64,000 bases of DNA from NCBI RefSeq assembly GCF_021272345.1, contig NZ_JAJSDQ010000004.1:124001-188000 (forward strand). The letters run 5' to 3'. Every line of letters begins with the position of its first letter. The stretch's first letter is position 1. Of this stretch, positions 49,106 through 58,157 are shown in pieces. The position numbers and the translations under genes are program-made. This DNA comes from Ornithinimicrobium sediminis. Lineage in GTDB: Bacteria; Actinomycetota; Actinomycetes; Actinomycetales; Dermatophilaceae. The notes under the pieces were generated by a model. The model ran no database searches. It was not told where the DNA came from and worked only from the letters and a program-made list of their open reading frames with translations.

Positions 49106-49178
49106 GGGCCTCTAGCTCAATGGTTAGAGCTGCGGACTTTTAATCCGTAGGTTGTGGGTTCGAGTCCCACGGGGCCCA
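49106..49178 (+). tRNA. tRNA-Lys (TTT anticodon)
   Basis: A 73-base cloverleaf. Acceptor strands GGGCCTC and GGGGCCC pair with one G-T, followed by discriminator A. The D arm (TAGCTCAATGGTTAGAGC), the anticodon loop CTTTTAA with TTT, and the T arm (GTGGGTTCGAGTCCCAC) are all intact. CCA is not encoded. The 3' part (from 49137) is shared with the integrated element, so the functional tRNA is now built from the chromosomal 5' part plus element-end sequence. Confidence 0.97.
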
Positions 49179-50475
49179 CCGTCTGACCAGCACTTTCGCT
49201 AGCCACACGCTCGGTCAGTAGGGCGACCTTGGGCAGGTTGGTCACGCTTTGGTCACGAGGGACCAGGGCGGCCGCCCTACTTGCCGCTTCGCGACCGACA
49301 CCCTCGAACAGATGCGAGTACGTGTCGGCTGTGATGGACACGCTGGAGTGCCCCAGACGCTTGCTGACGACGGCGAGGTCTACGTTCGCAGCCAGCAGGA
49401 GCGAAGCGGCACCGTGCCTGAGGTCGTGGAGGCGCACTGGCCGCAGCCCGCACTCAACTCCCAGTTGTGCGAACACCTTGGTGAGCCTATCGGGGGAAAG
49501 CGGCATCCCATCGCTGCGACAGAAGACCAGGTCGTGATCGCTGTAGGCTCCCCCGAAGGCGTCTCGGTCCTTGGCCTGTCGGTCCTGCTGGCCGAGAAGT
49601 GCATCGATTGAGCGATCGTCCAGCTCGAGAACTCGTCCCGTCCCGCTGTGAGTCTTCGGTTCCCCAAACGAGACGCGCGTGTGCAAACTCCCGCACGCCG
49701 TGCAGGCAGAGGTCATCGGTGCCTGCACCAACTGCTGACGAACGACGAGCACACCCCTGCTCAGGTCGACATCGGACCAGCGCAGTCCAAGGGCTTCACC
49801 TCTACGCAAACCAGTCATGGCCAGCACTTCGAAAAGGTGTCCCCACTCTGTTGTCGCCGCATGGTCCAAGAAGCGTCCCAGTTCGGACGGCTCCCAGGGA
49901 ACGACCTTGGGACGCTGCGCTGCGGGGACTTCGATGTCCACAGCAGCGTTGAGCGCCACAAGCCGGCTGCGCTTTGCCGCGGCGAGCGCGGATCGCAGCG
50001 TTGCACGGACCCGCTGTACCGTGGCGGGACTCACCGAAGGGCCGCCTGCGTCGAGGAGGCCTACGAGGAAGCGCTCGACCTGATCGGGCCTCAGATCTCG
50101 CAGACGGATGTGGCCCAGAGATGGCTTGATGTGTCCACGGATGTGCTGCTCATACGACCGGACCGTGGTCGGACGCAGACCTCCCAGCGCCTTTCGCGCC
50201 AACCACGCATCCAGGTACGTCCCCAAGGTGAGGCCCTCGTCGTAGGCGTGGCCACCACCCTCCAGTCCTGCCAACCTCTCCGCCAGCGCCTCCTCCGCAC
50301 GCCTCTTGGATCGGAACCCTCCTCGCCTCTCCTGGCGGCGTGCCCGCCAGGTCCCACCCTTGCCAGGGCCAGGCCCGAGGTCCATGACGTAGACCCAGGA
50401 ACCATGATCCTTTCGACACGACCCCTGCCGCCCTTCCTTGGGGCACCCGCATCGCTTGTAGACACGACCTCTCAC
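49117..50475 (-). CDS. int: Tyrosine-family site-specific integrase
   Basis: 452 residues. An N-terminal cysteine segment (CGCPKEGRQGSC) and an AP2-like region precede a SAM-like core-binding domain (LTLGTYLDAWLARKALGGLRPTTVRSYEQHIRGHI in pieces). The catalytic domain has ALTGLRR-type arginine in MTGLRRGEALGLRWSDVD, HDLRHGAASLLLAANVD, and RLGHSSVSITADTYSHLFE with the tyrosine nucleophile. GTG at 50475 follows AAAGGAAAG and overlaps the upstream stop by GTGA. The frame ends within the tRNA gene, so the C-terminus (about the last 20 residues, GLEPTTYGLKVRSSNH) is antisense to the tRNA. Confidence 0.95.
   Translation of the reverse strand: MRGRVYKRCGCPKEGRQGSCRKDHGSWVYVMDLGPGPGKGGTWRARRQERRGGFRSKRRAEEALAERLAGLEGGGHAYDEGLTLGTYLDAWLARKALGGLRPTTVRSYEQHIRGHIKPSLGHIRLRDLRPDQVERFLVGLLDAGGPSVSPATVQRVRATLRSALAAAKRSRLVALNAAVDIEVPAAQRPKVVPWEPSELGRFLDHAATTEWGHLFEVLAMTGLRRGEALGLRWSDVDLSRGVLVVRQQLVQAPMTSACTACGSLHTRVSFGEPKTHSGTGRVLELDDRSIDALLGQQDRQAKDRDAFGGAYSDHDLVFCRSDGMPLSPDRLTKVFAQLGVECGLRPVRLHDLRHGAASLLLAANVDLAVVSKRLGHSSVSITADTYSHLFEGVGREAASRAAALVPRDQSVTNLPKVALLTERVASESAGQTVGPVGLEPTTYGLKVRSSNH
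49137..49179 (+). repeat. attL core (43 bp, 3' part of tRNA-Lys)
   Basis: The 43 bases from the anticodon loop to just past the discriminator base, starting CTTTTAATCCGTAGG, recur identically at 58115-58157. The exact length, tRNA position and adjacent integrase are the pattern left by site-specific integration. Confidence 0.95.
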
Positions 50476-51212
50476 GGCATCTTTCCTTTGTCTGTTAGGT
50501 AGCGGGGTCCCGGGGCGATGACTCCGCGTCGGCCCGGCTGACCCGGGGCTAGCCATTCCTCTCGACGGGCCGCCTTGAGCCAGGTCCTGACGGTCTCAAC
50601 TGGCCAGTCCAGCTCCTGCGATATCAGTTCGTGGGAGCCACCCAGGTGCAGCGCAGTCTCAACGAACCTCCTGAACTCGCGCGGACTCCGACGCGGGCGC
50701 CCCGGTCGGGGCTGACGCGACTCCGAGATTCGCTCGAGACGTGCCGCGCCGACCGGACCAGCAAACTCCAGCACGTCCTCGAACGTGAATCGTGGGTCCG
50801 CTGGTAAGCCGCGCGCTATGGCCGACATCGCGGAGTAGATGAGCCCAAGTCGTACCTCGCGAAGGACGTGCGCCGTGATGGCGGTGGCTGGCATCGGCGG
50901 CAAGCCAGGCAGAGAGTCACGGTCGGCCCGGATGCTGAGCTCCGTGATGATCCACGAGGGCTCGCGCCACAGCAAGCGGCCGGTGATGACCCAGCCGATC
51001 CAGTCGTCCGTCCAACGACGTTCCTCAGGGTAGGTCCGCATCTCGAACGCGTGCTCCCCCTCCGGCTCTTCCGGCAACCACAAAGTGAAAGACGCGTCGG
51101 GATCGATGCTGTCCGACGGATCCGCGTCTCGGGCCACGAAGATGCGCGCTTCCTCCCCGACCAGTGAGATCGACTCAGCGCCGACCGACGAAACTTCCCA
51201 GTGCACAGCCAC
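50472..51212 (-). CDS. HTH-containing protein of unknown function, coupled to integrase
   Basis: 246 residues. The first 170 are acidic and of no recognised family (SVGAESISLVGEEARIFVARD; TLWLPEEPEGEHAFEMRTY). The C-terminal 60 look like a helix-turn-helix (SPREFRRFVETALHLGGSHELISQELDWPVETVRTWLKAARREEWL in pieces). The stop overlaps the integrase GTG. GTG at 51212 is used, with another 6 bases on. Coupling to int suggests a role in integration control. It is divergent from the HTH gene at 51339. Confidence 0.7.
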   Translation of the reverse strand: MAVHWEVSSVGAESISLVGEEARIFVARDADPSDSIDPDASFTLWLPEEPEGEHAFEMRTYPEERRWTDDWIGWVITGRLLWREPSWIITELSIRADRDSLPGLPPMPATAITAHVLREVRLGLIYSAMSAIARGLPADPRFTFEDVLEFAGPVGAARLERISESRQPRPGRPRRSPREFRRFVETALHLGGSHELISQELDWPVETVRTWLKAARREEWLAPGQPGRRGVIAPGPRYLTDKGKMP

Positions 51213-51234
51213 ACCGGAAGCGTCCCGCCCTGGC

Positions 51235-51254
51235 CACAGGTTGTCAACCCTGTG
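51235..51254. promoter_or_regulatory. Candidate operator in the element's divergent control region
   Basis: CACAGG and CCTGTG are 8 bases apart, and inside them GTTG-T-CAAC forms an offset palindrome. The site lies in the 126-base gap between the divergent HTH genes and is a plausible binding site of one of them. Confidence 0.45.
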
Positions 51255-51338
51255 CGCTCACCCGGTTCAGAAGGTCGGTATGTCGCGCCCGCCTTCTAGG
51301 CCGTTGTGCTGTTTCAGCCCGTATGCGCTCATAGGGTC

Positions 51339-51584
51339 ATGTTCACATCACGGCAAGGCCCATCCTCCCCACCCCCCTTCCTGCTGTCACTCAGTGAGGC
51401 GCTTGGCTCTGACGCCAAGGACCTGCGTCGCGCGGCTGGACTGTCCCTGCGAGACGTTGGGCGGTACTGCGGCGTCTCACACTCGGCAGTGAGTGCCTGG
51501 GAGGAAGGTCGCTACGCACCTCGGGGGCTCCACCTCGTGGCGTATGTCCAGCTGCTCGGTGTCCTTGCAAGGGGGCACCGGTGA
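51339..51584 (+). CDS. XRE-like helix-turn-helix protein
   Basis: 81 residues. LRRAAGLSLRDVGRYCGVSHSAVSAWEEGRYAPRG is an XRE/Cro-type HTH near residues 30-65, close to the C-terminus. Its length and location in a divergent control region fit an element repressor. ATG at 51339 is chosen because the added upstream residues of a longer reading are not HTH-like. The stop overlaps the next GTG. Confidence 0.75.
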   Translation: MFTSRQGPSSPPPFLLSLSEALGSDAKDLRRAAGLSLRDVGRYCGVSHSAVSAWEEGRYAPRGLHLVAYVQLLGVLARGHR

Positions 51585-51817
51585 CCGCTCCGACCCTCGC
51601 CGAAACGCGCGACCTGCCCGCTGTCCTGGACCTGCTCACCGCATGCTCCATCCTCGGGATCGGCAGGACAGTGGGGTACCGACTGGCCCAAGAGGGCAGT
51701 TTCCCGTGCCCCGTCCTGCGCGTTGGGCACCAGTACAGAGTGCCCACTGCGGGCCTCCTTGCCGCCATCGGTCTGAACGGCGACCTCTCGAGGGGGGTGC
51801 CGGACTCCGGTGCTTGA
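51581..51817 (+). CDS. Excisionase-like helix-turn-helix protein
   Basis: 78 residues with a MerR/HTH_17-type fold: VLDLLTACSILGIGRTVGYRLAQEGSFPCPVLRVGHQYRVPTAGLLAAIG in pieces, a motif common in excisionases. The start overlaps the upstream gene by GTGA and its stop overlaps the Rep-like gene. Together with the integrase it would control excision; the name is inferred from length, fold and place. Confidence 0.75.
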   Translation: MTAPTLAETRDLPAVLDLLTACSILGIGRTVGYRLAQEGSFPCPVLRVGHQYRVPTAGLLAAIGLNGDLSRGVPDSGA

Positions 51818-52499
51818 TCCCCTGCACGTGCTTGCTCAGTACGGCAGTGCTGATTCACCCGTTCGCTGGCCGCGATGTCCGAAGAAGGGCCACCTGATCC
51901 TCAGCGATCAGCGAGGACGGCGCATCCCAGCGCGGTGCGGCAACATCGGGTGCTGGGCCTGCATCATCCCCCGCGCCTTGGACTTCGGTTCCGCCATTGG
52001 GTTGGCGCGACCAAGCAGCCTCATCACGTGGACAGGCACCCCCGGGACGTGGGGGACCATCAACGCCACGCTCCGACGCCTCCGCCAGACCCTGGTGAGA
52101 CACCGCACCTCCTTCGAGTGGGCTTATCACGTCGAACAGAACCCTGGGCAAACCGGCACCCACGTTCACGCGTGGACCCACGGTGACGTGCCACCACGAG
52201 CCGAACTCAACGAGCTGGCGTCTTCGAACGGGCTCGGCCTCGTGTTCACTCGGCGGCTGTCACTGCCGGTAGGGGTGACCACGCTCGCGTACGGGATGAA
52301 GACCTGCATGAGTGGCCTCGAGGATGATCCCGCCCGCGATCGATACCTCGCGCTTAACGGCGGCCGGCTAGTCCATACCAGCCACAAGTTCTGGAGGGAG
52401 GCCACTGGCGAGCCCCTGGCCGACGCCCGCGAAGCCGTTCGTCACGCCCGCCGAAGCAAGGGACTCACGCAAGACTGGCGGTTGGAGATGCCCGCATGA
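51810..52499 (+). CDS. Rolling-circle replication initiator-like protein
   Basis: 229 residues. An N-terminal cysteine cluster (CPKKG...RCGNIGCWACIIPRA) resembles the zinc ribbon of actinobacterial plasmid Rep proteins. GTHVHAWTHG near residue 118 supplies an H-x-H of the HUH nuclease, and tyrosines follow in TLAYGMKTCMSG. GGRLVHTSHKFWREATG is a motif I associate with such Reps. The catalytic tyrosine cannot be fixed, so activity is inferred. It suggests a circular replicating stage. It overlaps the excisionase-like gene by 8 bases. Confidence 0.6.
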   Translation: MLDPLHVLAQYGSADSPVRWPRCPKKGHLILSDQRGRRIPARCGNIGCWACIIPRALDFGSAIGLARPSSLITWTGTPGTWGTINATLRRLRQTLVRHRTSFEWAYHVEQNPGQTGTHVHAWTHGDVPPRAELNELASSNGLGLVFTRRLSLPVGVTTLAYGMKTCMSGLEDDPARDRYLALNGGRLVHTSHKFWREATGEPLADAREAVRHARRSKGLTQDWRLEMPA

Positions 52500-52708
52500 C
52501 CCGCTTTGCTGCGTTTGCTGCACCCCTCCACGCGTGCGCACGCGAGCCAGGTGGGACTCCTGGTACCCCACCACCGGTCCGCGGGTCACAGGGTTCCCGA
52601 TCCGCCCCAGATGACGAGGAGCTGTGGATCGGAGGCCTCGGTCACGCACGTGCGTCGCATGGCCGACCTTCGGCATGCAACTCACCGTCGACGAGCAAAG
52701 TATCGTGA
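52496..52708 (+). CDS. Possible small protein after the Rep-like gene (weak)
   Basis: A 70-residue reading whose ATG overlaps the Rep-like stop by ATGA, which suggests coupling. The product (TRFAAFAAPLHACAREPGG onward) has no structure or family I can see, and the gap before the next gene could equally be non-coding. Listed because the overlap pattern matches the preceding genes. Confidence 0.25.
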   Translation: MTRFAAFAAPLHACAREPGGTPGTPPPVRGSQGSRSAPDDEELWIGGLGHARASHGRPSACNSPSTSKVS

Positions 52709-52743
52709 CGTGAGACAGCCACGATCGACCGGGGGCAGAAGTT

Positions 52744-53535
52744 GTGGAGCCGCGCACGGGCCTGCTGGACGTTAAGCGACGCCGTGAACGTGCCCAATTG
52801 ACACGCCAGGAGCTGGCCGATCTGGCAGACGTTTCCTACTCCACAGTTCGCCGTCTTGAAGTTGACCCAGGACATAGGGCGTCGCAGCGCACCGTGGAGC
52901 GAGTGAACCGAGTGCTGACTCGCGCGGAGGACCCCGCAATGGCCTACAAGCCGGACGACTCGTCCCAGCCGTTAGCGACCGCCCCAGCGATCACCAGCCT
53001 GGCCCGTGCCATGGGCGAGATAGACACCAGCTCGATCCTCGCCCGAGGCCGAGCCTTCACCACCGCCGACGCCACCACCAGCCTGGCCCGTGCCATGGGC
53101 GAGATAGACACCAGCTCGATCCTCGCCCGAGCCTTCACCACCGCCGACGCCACCACCAGCCTGGCCCGTGCCATGGGCGAGATAGACACCAGCTCGATCC
53201 TCGCCCGAGCCTTCACCACCGCCGACGCGATGAGACTGGCCGAGGCTGACCTCAGCGCTGAACAGGAAGAACAGGTGGAGGCGTGGGGCGCACTGAAGCT
53301 CCTACTTCTCCTGCAGCGCCCCGACTTGCGAGATGACCCAGCGGCGGTACAACTTGCCGCTCACGCGGCCGCTGTCGTGATCGTGTCTCTGGGCCTCACG
53401 CTCATGGTCGTTGCTCCCGAGATCTTTGCTCTGGCGACTGGACTCCTGGCTCTGGGGCAGGGAGGGCGCTGGGTCAAGAGCAAGTCGTCCCGCCTCTTGG
53501 TCCCGGAAGGGACAGATGCAGTGGAACCAGACTGA
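52744..53535 (+). CDS. HTH / tandem-repeat / membrane protein of unknown function
   Basis: 263 residues with three parts. Residues 8-57 form an XRE-type HTH (LTRQELADLADVSYSTVRRLEVDPG). Residues 84-162 hold three near-identical 26-residue repeats (SLARAMGEIDTSSILAR followed by AFTTADA), the first with two extra residues. Residues 203-247 contain two hydrophobic stretches (AAAVVIVSLGLTLMVVAPE; FALATGLLALGQ), so the protein may be membrane-bound. The design resembles no family I can name. It is the only plus-strand gene next to the defence cargo. Confidence 0.75.
   Translation: MEPRTGLLDVKRRRERAQLTRQELADLADVSYSTVRRLEVDPGHRASQRTVERVNRVLTRAEDPAMAYKPDDSSQPLATAPAITSLARAMGEIDTSSILARGRAFTTADATTSLARAMGEIDTSSILARAFTTADATTSLARAMGEIDTSSILARAFTTADAMRLAEADLSAEQEEQVEAWGALKLLLLLQRPDLRDDPAAVQLAAHAAAVVIVSLGLTLMVVAPEIFALATGLLALGQGGRWVKSKSSRLLVPEGTDAVEPD
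52993..53232 (+). repeat. Three near-identical 78-bp in-frame repeats
   Basis: Copies begin at 52993, 53077 and 53155 with ACCAGCCTGGCCCGTGCCAT. Copies 2 and 3 are in tandem; the first is 6 bases longer owing to an inserted GGCCGA. The repeats are close to identical at DNA level, including synonymous positions, so they arose recently by duplication or are kept uniform by recombination. Confidence 0.9.
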
Positions 53536-53688
53536 GACCGACCCTTGTGACCAACCCGTGACCACATCACCTCTGACCAGCAGAAACACGGTAGTCATCG
53601 GATATGGAATCCGTAGCGGCGAGACTGTCATGCAGCTCCCCAGGGCGGCAAGTGGGATCATCACGGCCGACCGCTGTCCGTGAACCCC

Positions 53689-56535
53689 CTACAGTTCAGG
53701 CGCCGGGAATGCCCAGTTGGAGAACGTGCAGTTGCAGTTCACTGCTCCCGGTCGCGTCACCGCCTCGCCCGCCCTCTCACGCTCTGCCACCAAGTGGTTA
53801 AGCGCAAGGAGCTGCGTCAGCACATCAATGGCCGGGTCAAGGCCGTAGGCCTCGAGCACAGCGCTGTCCAACTCGGTGTGCAGATCACGAAGAGTGCTCC
53901 GGCCAGGACGGCGCAACACGTCGTACTGCTGCGCCAGCGTTCGTCCATCGCCGAACGCTGCCGCGCGATGATCAACGATGGCCGCAGCGGCGCGCGCCAC
54001 TCGCTCCGCTGCGTCTGGATGTGGGTCCTGGGGCCAGGGGAAGTGTCCGCCGACATTCTTCGCTGTGTAGGTCAAGCGGGTTTCCAGAGTCGTGCACTTC
54101 TCGCGAAACCACTCTGTGTGCAAGTTGCTCTGCAAGATACCGAGCGAGTAGTCGTCGGCAAAGGGGAAGGCTACCGCCGAGTCCGAGATGTGCCATCCAG
54201 GGTCCACGAACGTGAAGACCGGACCGCGCAATTCACTTGACGTGCGCGTGAGGGCGATGTACCGAGGAAATCCGTCCAGCGCCTCCAGCATATCCGCGCG
54301 CCGATACCCCAACATCCACCAATGATCTGCAAAACGGATGTGGTGAACGTTCACACGTGCCCTTGGATTGGCCTGCAAGATCTCTCGGTTGACTGCCGCC
54401 TGCTTTTGTGCCTTGAATTGCCTGTCCTGCATCGCTGTGGGCTCGAGGAACGTGAGCAGCTTTGGGTACTTTGCCCACACTTGGTCGGAGTCATATTCAG
54501 GAATGTCAATGACCCAGTCATCGATGTTCAACTTATGGAGCATCTCTCGCCCGCCCAAGACCGGGTGGAGTACTTCCGCCGCTGATGGCTCCGCCCTGAC
54601 TAGTTCCCTAGCCTGTGCCCCGTCGACCTTGAAGGCATCCGCCACACCGAAGGTCTGTCCTTGGAAGAATGAGTCTTCGCTGGCTCTGAGGGTGACCGTG
54701 GTCCGCAGGTCTTTCAGGGGAGAGAGGGAACCCGAGATCTCCGCGACTTCTACGGGACGTTCGCCGTCATCCATCCAGAGCGTACGAACCGCCGGGAGCT
54801 GCCCACCCTTTTGCCAATTCACAATGGACACCGTGACTTGGGCTTCACCGGACCAAGGCATTTGTGAGACGGCGTCGAAGATCACTCCGTCGTTATCCAC
54901 GATGTAATCTAACGAAGCCCTACGACCATCACCTTGCTTGATCGACTTTGTACCTACGAAGCCGGCTCGACCGCCAGGGCGGAGGTGATCGTGCGCCCGC
55001 GGAAACCAATAGGTCACGAAGTCGGCCACGCCTTGCGGGCCGTACTTCGCATCGAGTTTTGCCACGTACGCAGCACCAAGGTCGCGAACCATGGACCGAC
55101 GACCGAGATATGGGGGGTTGCCGATGATGGTGTCTGCCCTGGGCCAAGGAGTGAAAAGTGCGTCTGAGCAGCTGATGATCCCGTCTAAGTTGTCGAGGGG
55201 CAGGACGTTGCGGTCCTCGTCTAGCTCGTCAGCGGCGAGCTTCTTACCCAACTGCATCGTCACCTTCGCAATCTCGACGGCGAAGGGGTTCGTATCAATG
55301 CCAAGGAAATTCTCGGGGTCCACATACGTGAGGCTGGTTTGTCCTGTCAGGACACCCCGCCGCCTTGCCATGAGCTTCTCGACAACCGCATGCTCCAATC
55401 GGCGCATCTCTCGATAGGCGACGTAGAGGAAGTTCCCTGATCCGCAGGCAGGATCGAGGACCCGATATGACAACATACTGTGAAGAAGAGCCTCAAGTTC
55501 GGGCACCGTCGTGGCTGCGTCGATCCGCTCGCGCCAAGGTTCCACGACGCACGGGCCCACAATCTTCGCGATATCGGCTTGCGATGTGAAGTGTGCACCC
55601 TGCGCGTGCCTTTCTCCCTTATCCATCGAACCCTCGAACAACGTCCCAAAAATCTCAGGACGCACGTCCGCCCAGTTCGTGATTGCAGCCTCCCGCAGAA
55701 GATTAATCTCATCCCGCGTGAGCTCTTGCGGCGAAACGTGTGAGAACAAGCCGCCGTTGAAGTAGGGTGTTCCGGCGAACCGGCCCCCCGCAGTCACCCC
55801 TGGAGTATTCATTTCACGGAACAGGCCGCCTATGAGATCATATGCTTCGGAGCCATTTCGTGAATCGCTCAGGGCTTCCGAGTACGAGTGACGAGGAAGG
55901 AGTCCAATATCCTCCGAGAACATGGCCATGACCCCTTGAAGGACAAACCGCTGCGCCACGACTGTCGGCACGCCTCGCGTCTTGAGCGATGAGAATACCT
56001 GTGCAACCTGGGATGCAGCCTCCCGCGTCACCTTGACTAGGTCGTTGCCGAATACCGGCTCTTCCGCAGTAGGGAACAGAAAACTAAGCGTCTCCCATCG
56101 CTTCTCTAATTCGTCTAGCGCGACGGTGTCTATAGGCTCGTCTAGTTGATTCTCGAAGTCGTATATCCAAAAATCGTCAAAGTTGCATAACACAACGTAC
56201 CTGGGGCGGTTAGGAACTGCCCTAACCCAGTAATCAAAGGCTTGCCGATAGTGCTGACGTAGTGGGGTGCCTGCCTTTTTCATCTCAATGAGGACACGAG
56301 GCTTCCAAAGCAAATCAGCGAAGCCCGTTCCCCGGTCATCCCTCCGCCTTAACCGCGATTCAAATTCTGCACCAGCATCTTGGACGCCCTCGTGCCCGAG
56401 GGCACGGAACAGGCGGTCTAAGAACGGTTGCGCCTCACCCTTCTCATCTCCGCGCAGCCGCGCTTTGCGCCACAAGGCGAACTCGGCCAAGTTCTGCTGA
56501 AGCTGAGGCATGGGAAGGTTGGCTGAGGAGGGCAT
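53689..56535 (-). CDS. MmeI-type single-chain restriction-modification enzyme (type IIL/IIG)
   Basis: 948 residues with nuclease, methylase and specificity in one chain. The D...E-x-K nuclease site is GFADLLWKPRVLIEMKKAG (residues 71-89). The methyltransferase has DPACGSGNFLYVAY (361, motif I) and NPPYLG (473, motif IV, adenine type). The last ~300 residues would be the target recognition domain (HHIRFADHWWMLGYRRADML). MmeI-like enzymes methylate one strand of their site and cut at a distance. No separate methylase or specificity subunit is needed or seen. Codon use is less GC-rich than in neighbours, a sign of transfer. Confidence 0.85.
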   Translation of the reverse strand: MPSSANLPMPQLQQNLAEFALWRKARLRGDEKGEAQPFLDRLFRALGHEGVQDAGAEFESRLRRRDDRGTGFADLLWKPRVLIEMKKAGTPLRQHYRQAFDYWVRAVPNRPRYVVLCNFDDFWIYDFENQLDEPIDTVALDELEKRWETLSFLFPTAEEPVFGNDLVKVTREAASQVAQVFSSLKTRGVPTVVAQRFVLQGVMAMFSEDIGLLPRHSYSEALSDSRNGSEAYDLIGGLFREMNTPGVTAGGRFAGTPYFNGGLFSHVSPQELTRDEINLLREAAITNWADVRPEIFGTLFEGSMDKGERHAQGAHFTSQADIAKIVGPCVVEPWRERIDAATTVPELEALLHSMLSYRVLDPACGSGNFLYVAYREMRRLEHAVVEKLMARRRGVLTGQTSLTYVDPENFLGIDTNPFAVEIAKVTMQLGKKLAADELDEDRNVLPLDNLDGIISCSDALFTPWPRADTIIGNPPYLGRRSMVRDLGAAYVAKLDAKYGPQGVADFVTYWFPRAHDHLRPGGRAGFVGTKSIKQGDGRRASLDYIVDNDGVIFDAVSQMPWSGEAQVTVSIVNWQKGGQLPAVRTLWMDDGERPVEVAEISGSLSPLKDLRTTVTLRASEDSFFQGQTFGVADAFKVDGAQARELVRAEPSAAEVLHPVLGGREMLHKLNIDDWVIDIPEYDSDQVWAKYPKLLTFLEPTAMQDRQFKAQKQAAVNREILQANPRARVNVHHIRFADHWWMLGYRRADMLEALDGFPRYIALTRTSSELRGPVFTFVDPGWHISDSAVAFPFADDYSLGILQSNLHTEWFREKCTTLETRLTYTAKNVGGHFPWPQDPHPDAAERVARAAAAIVDHRAAAFGDGRTLAQQYDVLRRPGRSTLRDLHTELDSAVLEAYGLDPAIDVLTQLLALNHLVAERERAGEAVTRPGAVNCNCTFSNWAFPAPEL

Positions 56536-56781
56536 AGTGAGAGCCTAAGGCTCCAGAGGGTCAACGTGCGCCATGACGCACGATCGTGCCGCAGGAGGTC
56601 CAGTCGCAGTCGCAACTACCGACGACTCCGATACGGACCACTCTTGTAGCTCCCCGAGGGTCGCTCCGTCGGCCGTCTTCCACTCCGTGTCCCTATTCCT
56701 GGCCCCCCGTCAGGACACTCGATGCAGCAGCACTTGCCCTGGTCAGCGGGCCTTGGACCGTTCCAGTCGCGCCGATCCGAG

Positions 56782-57840
56782 TCAGCCCTCCTGCGTCTCT
56801 ACCGGGGACAACTGCCCCGCAACGGACTCTCCAGGCGCTGGCTCGACCAGCTGATGCGACGCCTCGTCCTCTCCCACTTCGGCGTCATCCGGCGCGCCAG
56901 CAGACGAGGGAGGTGCGGCCACCGACTGGGCCTGGAGTTCCTTCAGGGTCGTGCCGTCGCTCGTTCTCCACTCAGTGCGGCCGTTCCGTGAGGCTCCGGT
57001 CAGAACGCTTGCCGCAGCGGAGGGAGACTCGAAGACATACGTCCTCGTCAGGACGAATTCATCGTCCGCAACGGGAGCCAACACGCCATTTGAGAGCAAC
57101 TGATCCCTCAGCCGTTGGTAAGACGACGCCATGGTGACGGCCCGCTTGCGCGCCGTTGCGCCCTTGTACACGACAAACCCCTTGGACTCATCACGCGCGC
57201 TGGCCATGATCCCGGTTGTCTTGAGGAACAGGAGGGGGCGATCCTTCTCGTCCGTCACCGAAGGCTCCTCGGGCTGCGCTTGGGCCTGAGGAGCTTCATT
57301 CGCGACCTCCACCGTCTCCTCGACAGCCTCGAAAATGTCGACTCCAAGCAGTGGCAGCAGATCCAGCCAGTACTCAAGGTAGGTATCCATGAGAGCGGCA
57401 TCTGCCTCGCTCAAGAACGGCAGTTCCGGGGCAGTACGGTTGTCGATCGATGCAACGCCCGCCTCCTGGGCGAGGATCAACAGGTGCGCTTCCAGACGCC
57501 GAACCTCTGCCTTGTTCAGTGAGCTGTCGTTCGTGGTAAGCACGTAGGCGTCCGTCCAGAAGTCCTTGGAGCGATGGTGCTCGTCCAACCGAGTGCGGAC
57601 TGAGTCTGCCTCTCCCACATACACACGCACGTCGTTCGACCCCTCTACATCGGGACCGGTCAGGATGTAGACACCAGTGCGTTGCAGTTCCTCCCGCGTC
57701 CTGACCTTCTGGTAGTCCGGTCGTGCGAATGCGAAGCAGACGCCCGTCCACCCAGCTCGAGTGACTATCCGCAGTCCTTGCGGCGTACCGTCCGCCAGGA
57801 AGATGCGGATGGACACACCGCGGGCTCTTGGTGCTGGCAT
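56782..57840 (-). CDS. GIY-YIG nuclease-domain protein with DUF4357
   Basis: 352 residues. TGVYILTGPD and VRVYVGEADSVRTRLDEH give the GIY-YIG motif (G-V-Y...Y-V-G, arginine in SVRTR). The C-terminal third, SARDESKGFVVYKGATARKRAV and TLKELQAQS, matches DUF4357. The joint architecture is known in prokaryotes and often near restriction systems, but its function is not established. ATG at 57840 matches the family start (GVSIRIFLADGTPQGLRIV); a longer reading to 57903 adds unlike sequence. It lies upstream of the MmeI-type gene on the same strand, 246 bases apart, and could share its promoter. Confidence 0.8.
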   Translation of the reverse strand: MPAPRARGVSIRIFLADGTPQGLRIVTRAGWTGVCFAFARPDYQKVRTREELQRTGVYILTGPDVEGSNDVRVYVGEADSVRTRLDEHHRSKDFWTDAYVLTTNDSSLNKAEVRRLEAHLLILAQEAGVASIDNRTAPELPFLSEADAALMDTYLEYWLDLLPLLGVDIFEAVEETVEVANEAPQAQAQPEEPSVTDEKDRPLLFLKTTGIMASARDESKGFVVYKGATARKRAVTMASSYQRLRDQLLSNGVLAPVADDEFVLTRTYVFESPSAAASVLTGASRNGRTEWRTSDGTTLKELQAQSVAAPPSSAGAPDDAEVGEDEASHQLVEPAPGESVAGQLSPVETQEG

Positions 57841-58114
57841 GCCGTCATTATGCCCCGGGCAACCCACGGCTGACGCCCAGCCCAGCAGTGCAGACTTGGC
57901 CACGAGCGCCGAGCCTGACCATCGTTGAGCTTCTCGCAGCGGCCCCTTGGCTACGTTGGGCCTGTGTGAGGCGGAGTGGTCACCTGGTTGGTCACGGATG
58001 CCGCGTCACTCTCCGACAATGCGCGTCACAGACGGGCACTCCGAAACCCCCTGACCTGTACAGACTCACATTCACCGGCACAGGACGACACAACTCAGGC
58101 TCGCTCCCCGCGTT

Positions 58115-58157
58115 CTTTTAATCCGTAGGTTGTGGGTTCGAGTCCCACGGGGCCCAC
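58115..58157 (+). repeat. attR core (43 bp)
   Basis: Exact second copy of the tRNA-Lys 3' sequence at 49137-49179. Upstream bases differ (GTT instead of GGA), so no second tRNA is formed. It marks the right end of the integrated element. Confidence 0.95.

What the first reader, a model, noticed from the sequence alone, without database searches (positions are those of the whole stretch)
49137..58157. Compact restriction-bearing integrative element in tRNA-Lys, with both ends exact
A 43-bp direct repeat (49137-49179 and 58115-58157) brackets about 9 kb holding an integrase, regulators, an excisionase-like protein, a Rep-like protein, an unusual repeat protein, an MmeI-type enzyme and a GIY-YIG/DUF4357 protein. 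No transfer or virion genes are present. It looks like a small satellite or plasmid-like element whose main cargo is defence, and I do not recognise it as a described family.
Basis: partly seen in the sequence, partly recalled or inferred. Interest (0 to 1): 0.75.

Follow-up and report, generated by a model that had tools for sequence, protein, structure and literature searches.

The report
Small restriction-carrying mobile element in tRNA
A 9-kb stretch of DNA appears to have inserted itself into a tRNA gene of an actinobacterium, carrying genes to move, a probable plasmid-style replication starter and a restriction enzyme; a few relatives elsewhere share the plan with different defence cargo, so it looks like a rare but recurring carrier of bacterial immunity that would have to borrow its means of transfer.

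Summary
Exact 43-bp repeats (49137-49179 in tRNA-Lys; 58115-58157) bound a 9-kb element with two divergent short operons (orf246-int; HTH-xis-Rep), a repeat protein, an MmeI-like type IIG enzyme with intact motifs and a GIY-YIG/DUF4357 protein (PADLOC PDC-S14). No conjugation, relaxase or virion family hits its eight main ORFs. Best reading: an integrative, probably rolling-circle-replicating, helper-dependent element with restriction as cargo. Its hallmark is an unnamed Rep with Cys and HUH motifs. Three more elements with defined tRNA ends share int-xis-Rep and carry MTase-based defence: type ISP/IIG (tRNA-Gly, 7.4 kb), type I (tRNA-Gly, 17 kb), Hma-like (tRNA-Met, 24 kb). Three other Rep loci show none; one is contig-cut, one resembles a capsid-forming satellite. 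The plan is already described in E. coli (PMC12458937), so this is an actinobacterial variant of a known kind. Empty-site support is modest: one of 28 informative relatives aligns well past the joined junction. New context: the element heads a tandem array of tRNA-Lys scars whose next two segments lack an evident integrase but keep arm-like repeats. Excision, replication, transfer and restriction are inferred.

The parts
49106..49180 (+). tRNA-Lys(TTT), integration target
   Evidence: ARAGORN; Rfam RF00005
49137..49179 (+). attL core, 43 bp, 3' end of tRNA-Lys
   Evidence: exact repeat
49239..49256 (+). left arm candidate TGGTCAC-N4-TGGTCAC (putative integrase arm site)
   Evidence: exact match, (window mean of shuffles 0.61 with up to 2 mismatches); function inferred
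49117..50556 (-). int, tyrosine recombinase; ORF runs through attL; likely start GTG 50475
   Evidence: Pfam PF00589 2.5e-22, PHROG integrase 1.6e-72, GTGA overlap
50472..51212 (-). orf246, putative DNA-binding protein, probably translationally coupled to int
   Evidence: sigma70_r4-like C-terminus only at E 0.017, below cut-off; GTGA overlap
51306..51584 (+). HTH_3 regulator
   Evidence: PF01381 7e-11
51581..51817 (+). xis-like wHTH; start overlaps the HTH stop as GTGA
   Evidence: PF12728 1.5e-4, TIGR01764 excise 0.0019, both below curated cut-off; sequence
51810..52499 (+). Rep, HUH-type initiator family (C43-C48-C51, GTHVHAWTHG, AYGMK)
   Evidence: alignments; relatives; fold
52744..53535 (+). 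HTH + 26-aa tandem repeats + hydrophobic C-terminal segment
   Evidence: PF01381 2.6e-6; repeats D1; hydropathy peak from residue about 205
53547..53564 (-). third arm-like site at the junction of backbone and cargo
   Evidence: exact match
53689..56535 (-). MmeI-like type IIG restriction-methylation enzyme, 948 aa
   Evidence: PADLOC REase_MTase_IIG 1064 bits over residues 13-935; MmeI_N/hel/Mtase/TRD Pfam domains over cut-off, MmeI_C below it; D74-X9-E.K, DPACGSG, NPPY
56782..57903 (-). GIY-YIG-like + DUF4357 protein (PADLOC candidate PDC-S14)
   Evidence: PDC-S14 3.4e-97; DUF4357 1.9e-19; GVY..YVG..R and EVRRLE present
57977..57995 (+). right arm candidate TGGTCAC-N5-TGGTCAC
   Evidence: exact match; 50 of 100 shuffles hold at least one match with up to 2 mismatches
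58115..58157 (+). attR core, 43 bp; also the left scar of the next tandem segment

Best explanation
This is a helper-dependent integrative element. Int recombines an attP core with the 3' end of tRNA-Lys, and the core restores the tRNA end. The xis-like protein directs excision. The excised circle is replicated by the HUH Rep, probably by rolling circle. The HTH protein between the two divergent operons probably controls the switch. No apparatus to leave the cell was recognised, so it must spread in particles of a helper phage, through a co-resident conjugative element, or as free DNA. Its cargo, a one-protein MmeI-like restriction-methylation enzyme plus a GIY-YIG/DUF4357 candidate defence protein, protects the host from phage and makes loss of the element costly. 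Shown: both ends, gene content, intact enzyme motifs, relatives with the same backbone. Inferred: integration by this Int, excision, rolling-circle replication, helper transfer, active restriction.
For: Exact att cores and tRNA target. Int, xis and HTH profiles. Rep motifs: C43, C48, C51, H118 and H120 invariant in a 6-sequence alignment, the window included, and kept in a seventh, G579. Rep model pLDDT 72.8; best PDB match SIRV1 ORF119 (a Rep by recall), E 0.015. The L041 Rep hits PHROG 'replication initiation protein' at 3.6e-4. Same int-xis-Rep backbone with tRNA-end repeats and MTase-based defence in G679, G579 and G265. Rep is 38-42% identical to the window in G679, G579 and URHB0013 while int is 25-29%. 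Empty-site-like junction in G027. MmeI motifs intact.
Against: No test of excision or circular form. The fold search has 0 matches at E<=0.001, and ranks 2-5 are unrelated phosphoglycerate dehydrogenases; no PDB sequence matches. Own C9 and L041 show no PADLOC hit for the 6 and 5 proteins scanned, and URHB0013 is cut by the contig end. The MTase association is small-number: within 4 kb of int 3 of 7 Rep loci against 0 of 20 control integrase loci, Fisher p 0.012; within 6 kb 3 of 7 against 2 of 20, p 0.09, with a motif filter I wrote after seeing the positives. In G265 the MTase lies 13.6 kb from int. Arm sites are only modestly rarer than chance. No exact empty site: matched flank stretches are 69-80% identical in the genus relatives compared at length (8 genomes). 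G265 also holds a resolvase, so its 24 kb may be composite.
Confidence: 0.72

Rival explanations
1. A phage satellite proper: the element is induced by a specific helper phage and packaged in its capsids, with the HUH Rep amplifying it and restriction hitting competing phages.
For: A Rep relative (31% identical) sits in L041, a 12.2-kb IMG/VR contig with int, xis-like gene, head-tail adaptor, HNH, terminase large subunit, head morphogenesis, scaffold and major head protein, a cf-PICI-like content by recall. Size is in the satellite range by recall. PMC12458937 proposes the same for the E. coli counterparts.
Against: No PHROG head or packaging family in the window's 8 main ORFs. No DNA match of 49180-53690 to 50,697 phage records and no Rep match there. 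L041 is open at both ends, so tails may only be out of view.
Confidence: 0.35
2. A degenerate AICE or integrated rolling-circle plasmid that lost its FtsK/TraB gene and is now stranded.
For: Int-xis-Rep is the non-transfer half of an AICE. PMC3218068 lists Frankia elements lacking tra or rep as possible remnants or mobilizable elements.
Against: Rep matches no Pfam family at E<=0.1; the PF20199 (RepSA) genome search was also negative, but its controls rang nowhere. The scanned ORFs of G679, G579 and G265 also show no FtsK/SpoIIIE or relaxase Pfam match (not every small ORF was scanned), so loss would have to be repeated.
Confidence: 0.2
3. An element mobilised by conjugation of a co-resident plasmid or ICE, with Rep doubling as relaxase.
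For: HUH Reps can act as relaxases in other systems (recalled, not tested). No phage structural family in the window element.
Against: No relaxase or mobilisation family among the 8 main ORFs; no plasmid record of 72,556 matches the Rep or the backbone DNA.
Confidence: 0.25

Closest known systems
tRNA-integrated HUH-Rep defence islands of E. coli (PMC12458937, section 11 read whole; preprint 2025)
   Same: integrase, AlpA-like excisionase, HUH rolling-circle Rep, direct repeat in a tRNA 3' end, defence cargo, few phage genes, serial integration in one tRNA
   Different: actinobacterial hosts; 40-47 nt repeats instead of 16-20 nt; an unnamed Rep family whose kinship to the E. coli Rep was not tested; no moron module recognised
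Actinomycete integrative and conjugative elements (pSAM2-type AICE; PMC3218068, passages seen)
   Same: tyrosine integrase in tRNA, xis, replication initiator, small size
   Different: no FtsK/SpoIIIE transfer protein recognised; Rep not RepSA/RepAM/Prim-Pol by hmmscan
Capsid-forming PICIs (recalled), as possibly in L041
   Same: int, xis, Rep backbone; the Rep family is shared with L041
   Different: window element has no head or packaging family
MmeI-like single-chain type IIG/IIL restriction enzymes
   Same: domain order, nuclease and MTase motifs
   Different: the 20 best-listed of 428 plasmid records matched are 27-45% identical; recognition site unknown

Membership tests
HUH-Rep defence MGE (PMC12458937) | site-specific integrase and excisionase | tested here: met
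   (xis profiles below curated cut-off)
HUH-Rep defence MGE (PMC12458937) | HUH-family Rep endonuclease | tested here: inconclusive
   HxH and Cys columns invariant in 6 sequences, Y..K in most; weak fold match; no activity test
HUH-Rep defence MGE (PMC12458937) | direct repeats, one in a tRNA 3' end | tested here: met
HUH-Rep defence MGE (PMC12458937) | defence cargo | tested here: met
   (by profile, not by activity)
HUH-Rep defence MGE (PMC12458937) | homology of Rep to the E. coli elements' Rep | not tested
   no E. coli sequence of those elements was fetched
AICE | FtsK/SpoIIIE-type Tra protein | tested here: not met
   no such Pfam match in 8 main ORFs
AICE | RepSA, RepAM or Prim-Pol replication protein | tested here: not met
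   no Pfam match for Rep at E<=0.1; PF20199 none in genome, controls silent
PICI or P4-like phage satellite | packaging or capsid-interference genes | tested here: not met
   no PHROG head/packaging match in the 8 main ORFs at E<=0.01
PICI or P4-like phage satellite | helper-phage induction and packaging | not testable with these tools
   needs an experiment
Integrative and mobilizable element (IME) | relaxase gene or oriT | tested here: inconclusive
   no relaxase family; oriT cannot be recognised here
MmeI-like type IIG/IIL R-M | fused nuclease, MTase and target-recognition domains with catalytic motifs | tested here: met
   (motif definitions recalled)
MmeI-like type IIG/IIL R-M | restriction and methylation activity | not testable with these tools
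   needs methylome or plating assay

The most novel reading that the evidence does not exclude
A Rep-defined actinobacterial lineage of satellites has specialised in DNA-methyltransferase-based immunity: the Cys/HUH Rep backbone exchanges integrases (so it enters tRNA-Lys, -Gly, -Met) and exchanges whole R-M systems as cargo. A capsid-bearing sister (L041) hints how such elements are packaged, and R-M serves both as weapon against the helper's rivals and as addiction module.
Probability: 0.28. Interest if true: 0.72.

Novelty: new variant of a known kind. Interest (0 to 1): 0.5.

Why it matters
It suggests that the integrase-excisionase-HUH Rep plan recently noticed behind E. coli defence islands also occurs in actinobacteria with an unnamed, rare Rep family and near-minimal size, and gives four elements with defined ends on which the open question of how defence islands move can be tested. 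The tandem scars show how such elements and metabolic islands may accumulate in one tRNA gene.

Tried and rejected
Aldo/keto-reductase synteny search for an empty site: no tRNA lay within the nine best-matching short loci scanned, so it was dropped. Weak single-sequence Rep hits G113 and G204 did not look like Rep on ORF reading and were absent from the profile hits of the class; dropped before any count. The orf246 hit G465 (E 2e-4, 73 aa) was treated as HTH noise. The RepSA genome search is uninformative because its controls rang nowhere. The right-flank search for an empty tRNA-Gly site of the G579 element hit mostly a repeated csbD-like region or the tRNA end alone; no empty site claimed. 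No phage or viral relatives: orf246, window Rep in phage records, backbone DNA; int found 5 viral-contig integrases at 26-31%. Two actinobacterial mobilome papers read by passages showed ICEs, plasmids, phages and IS elements, not this plan. Chance as the source of the repeat is rejected by length and genome-wide count. Weaknesses: the genome search scores few candidates per genome (up to 6 or 14), so Rep may be under-counted; the genome contigs pattern search gave 2 loci and listed neither G579 nor G679. Control loci for the MTase test were 20 integrase hits from the upper part of the list, chosen for contig length and one per genome, not checked for tRNA ends; in L135, L141 and L143 one side is shorter than 8 kb.
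Full report
Ends. The 43-bp repeat is exact and occurs twice in the held genome. The left copy is the 3' end of tRNA-Lys(TTT). GC is 63.0% inside (65.8% in the backbone, 60.3% in the cargo) and 72.0% in the rest of the window.

Anatomy. Leftward operon: orf246 then int, overlapping as GTGA. Rightward operon: HTH, xis-like, Rep, with overlapping ends. About 90 bp separate the operons. Next come an HTH/repeat/hydrophobic protein, and on the other strand the MmeI-like enzyme and the GIY-YIG/DUF4357 protein. Profiles: int PF00589 2.5e-22; xis PF12728 1.5e-4 (below cut-off); MmeI-like enzyme PADLOC REase_MTase_IIG 1064 bits; last gene PADLOC PDC-S14 3.4e-97. The nuclease motif D-X9-ExK and MTase motifs DPACGSG and NPPY are present, as are GIY-YIG signatures (motif definitions recalled). 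No family for conjugation, relaxase or virion was hit in the 8 main ORFs.

Candidate arms. TGGTCAC pairs lie just inside both ends, at 49239-49256 and 57977-57995, and a third at the backbone/cargo border, 53547-53564; all three are exact. With up to two mismatches the shuffled window gives 0.61 and 0.68 on average; 4 of 100 shuffles reached the 3 matches seen for the first spacing and 50 of 100 the single match of the second. Their role as integrase arm sites is inferred from position.

Rep. No library family matches the window protein. Relatives: own genome C9 and G265, URHB0013 (the same locus as G572), L041, G679, G579. Alignments share Cys residues, HxH and, in most, a Y..K motif; L041 lacks a clear Y motif and G679 has changed residues after HxH. 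The model (pLDDT 72.8, pTM 0.73) has as best PDB match SIRV1 ORF119, E 0.015; ranks 2-5 are phosphoglycerate dehydrogenases and ranks 6 and 8 parvovirus NS1 nuclease domains; none passes 0.001. The HUH assignment rests mainly on motif. The profile finds Rep in 3 of 396 genomes of the order, 3 of 186 of the family and 2 of 394 of the class, each count including the window's own genome; no plasmid of 72,556 and no phage of 50,697 records matched.

Sister elements. G679: tRNA-Gly, int, xis, Rep, single-chain type ISP/IIG enzyme, exact 47-bp repeat, 7.4 kb. G579: tRNA-Gly, int, xis, Rep, HsdM, HsdS, Mrr-like, HsdR, 40-nt core with one mismatch, 17.3 kb, plus a TPR protein and others. G265: tRNA-Met, 45-bp exact repeat, 24.2 kb, Hma/DUF499-DUF1156-helicase genes, a resolvase, with Rep, xis and int at the far end. 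URHB0013: tRNA-Gly, int, xis, Rep, then the contig end within 1 kb of Rep. Own C9: int, Rep, xis and a second recombinase, no tRNA within the roughly 59 kb held, no PADLOC hit in 6 proteins. L041: head and packaging genes, no PADLOC hit in 5 proteins. Thus 4 of 4 elements with both ends defined carry MTase-based defence; the 3 other Rep loci do not or cannot show it. Between the window element and six Rep loci (923 ORFs) blastp at E<=0.01 links only Rep (6 of 6 loci) and int (5 of 6); xis is shared by profile only.

Control. Twenty integrase loci taken from the upper part of the list, chosen for contig length, were scanned with an MTase motif filter: 0 of 20 within 4 kb and 2 of 20 within 6 kb; Rep loci 3 of 7 within 4 kb. 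Fisher 0.012 and 0.09. The filter was written after the positives were known, and the sample is small.

Backbone exchange. Rep is 38-42% identical between the window and G679, G579 and URHB0013; int is 25-29% and xis 12-21%. Rep is thus the better-conserved mark of the group.

Empty site and array. In the genus, 31 of 31 genomes match the tRNA-Lys query; loci of 29 of 30 relatives were compared, 28 of them with enough sequence after the tRNA. The joined junction aligns over 178 bp in G027; G018, G002 and G019 extend 21-29 bp past it; the occupied sequence stops within 7 bp of the core in all 29. The sequence matching G027 is itself arm-like, so G027 may hold another element there. The result shows that tRNA-Lys can be followed directly by what follows attR here; it does not show a virgin chromosome. 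In the window's genome the scars continue at C11:207324 and 214557; the segments between (25 kb with sugar uptake and catabolism genes by eye; 7.2 kb) show no integrase by eye among the called ORFs but have TGGCCACC repeats at their ends, shared with tRNA-Lys loci of G004 and G027.

Literature. PMC12458937 section 11 was read whole: E. coli defence islands as elements with integrase, excisionase, HUH Rep and tRNA repeats (other passages). PMC3218068 passages: AICE definition and elements lacking tra or rep. PMC11389934 passages on hitcher elements. PMC5644110 and PMC6579920 passages, not matching. Searches for an actinobacterial description listed none that I recognised from titles and abstract starts; apart from the five papers just named, the listed papers were not opened, and several listings were capped.

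Verdict. A real, well-bounded element; an actinobacterial variant of a recently described kind, with a rare unnamed Rep. Mechanism beyond the integrated state is inference.

Noticed in passing
G000:C11:182158-214556 (window 58158 onward): Two segments (25 kb with sugar uptake/catabolism genes, 7.2 kb) bounded by tRNA-Lys 3' scars show no integrase by eye among called ORFs but have TGGCCACC-repeat arms at their ends, also seen at tRNA-Lys loci of G027 and G004: they look like cis-mobilizable (CIME-like) islands.
   Followed up: partly
L041:1-12191 (IMG/VR): Viral-collection contig with int, xis-like gene, terminase, head proteins and a Rep of this family: a possible actinobacterial capsid-forming satellite.
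   Followed up: partly
L029:10901-12312: A HigBA-like toxin-antitoxin pair (by eye; no PADLOC hit) between two exact tRNA-Met 3' scars, 1.37 kb, no integrase seen.
   Followed up: partly
L109:8219-9619: Tyrosine integrase with an internal Lsr2-like DNA-binding stretch (PF23359 1.3e-9); the G579 integrase has it too, just below cut-off (6.6e-6).
   Followed up: no
L028:5379-12441 (own genome C9): A second, divergent Rep with its own int and xis beside another tyrosine recombinase and lipoprotein-like genes; ends not found.
   Followed up: partly
L040:3226-4626: PD-Lambda-1-like defence gene just outside the tRNA-Met scars of G265.
   Followed up: no
window 53049-53204: Two 78-nt copies coding the 26-aa repeat of the HTH protein are identical in DNA, hence probably a recent duplication.
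   Followed up: no
L047 and L059: 529 bp after tRNA-Lys are 99.6% identical between two species of the genus, probably a recent transfer at the same tRNA.
   Followed up: no
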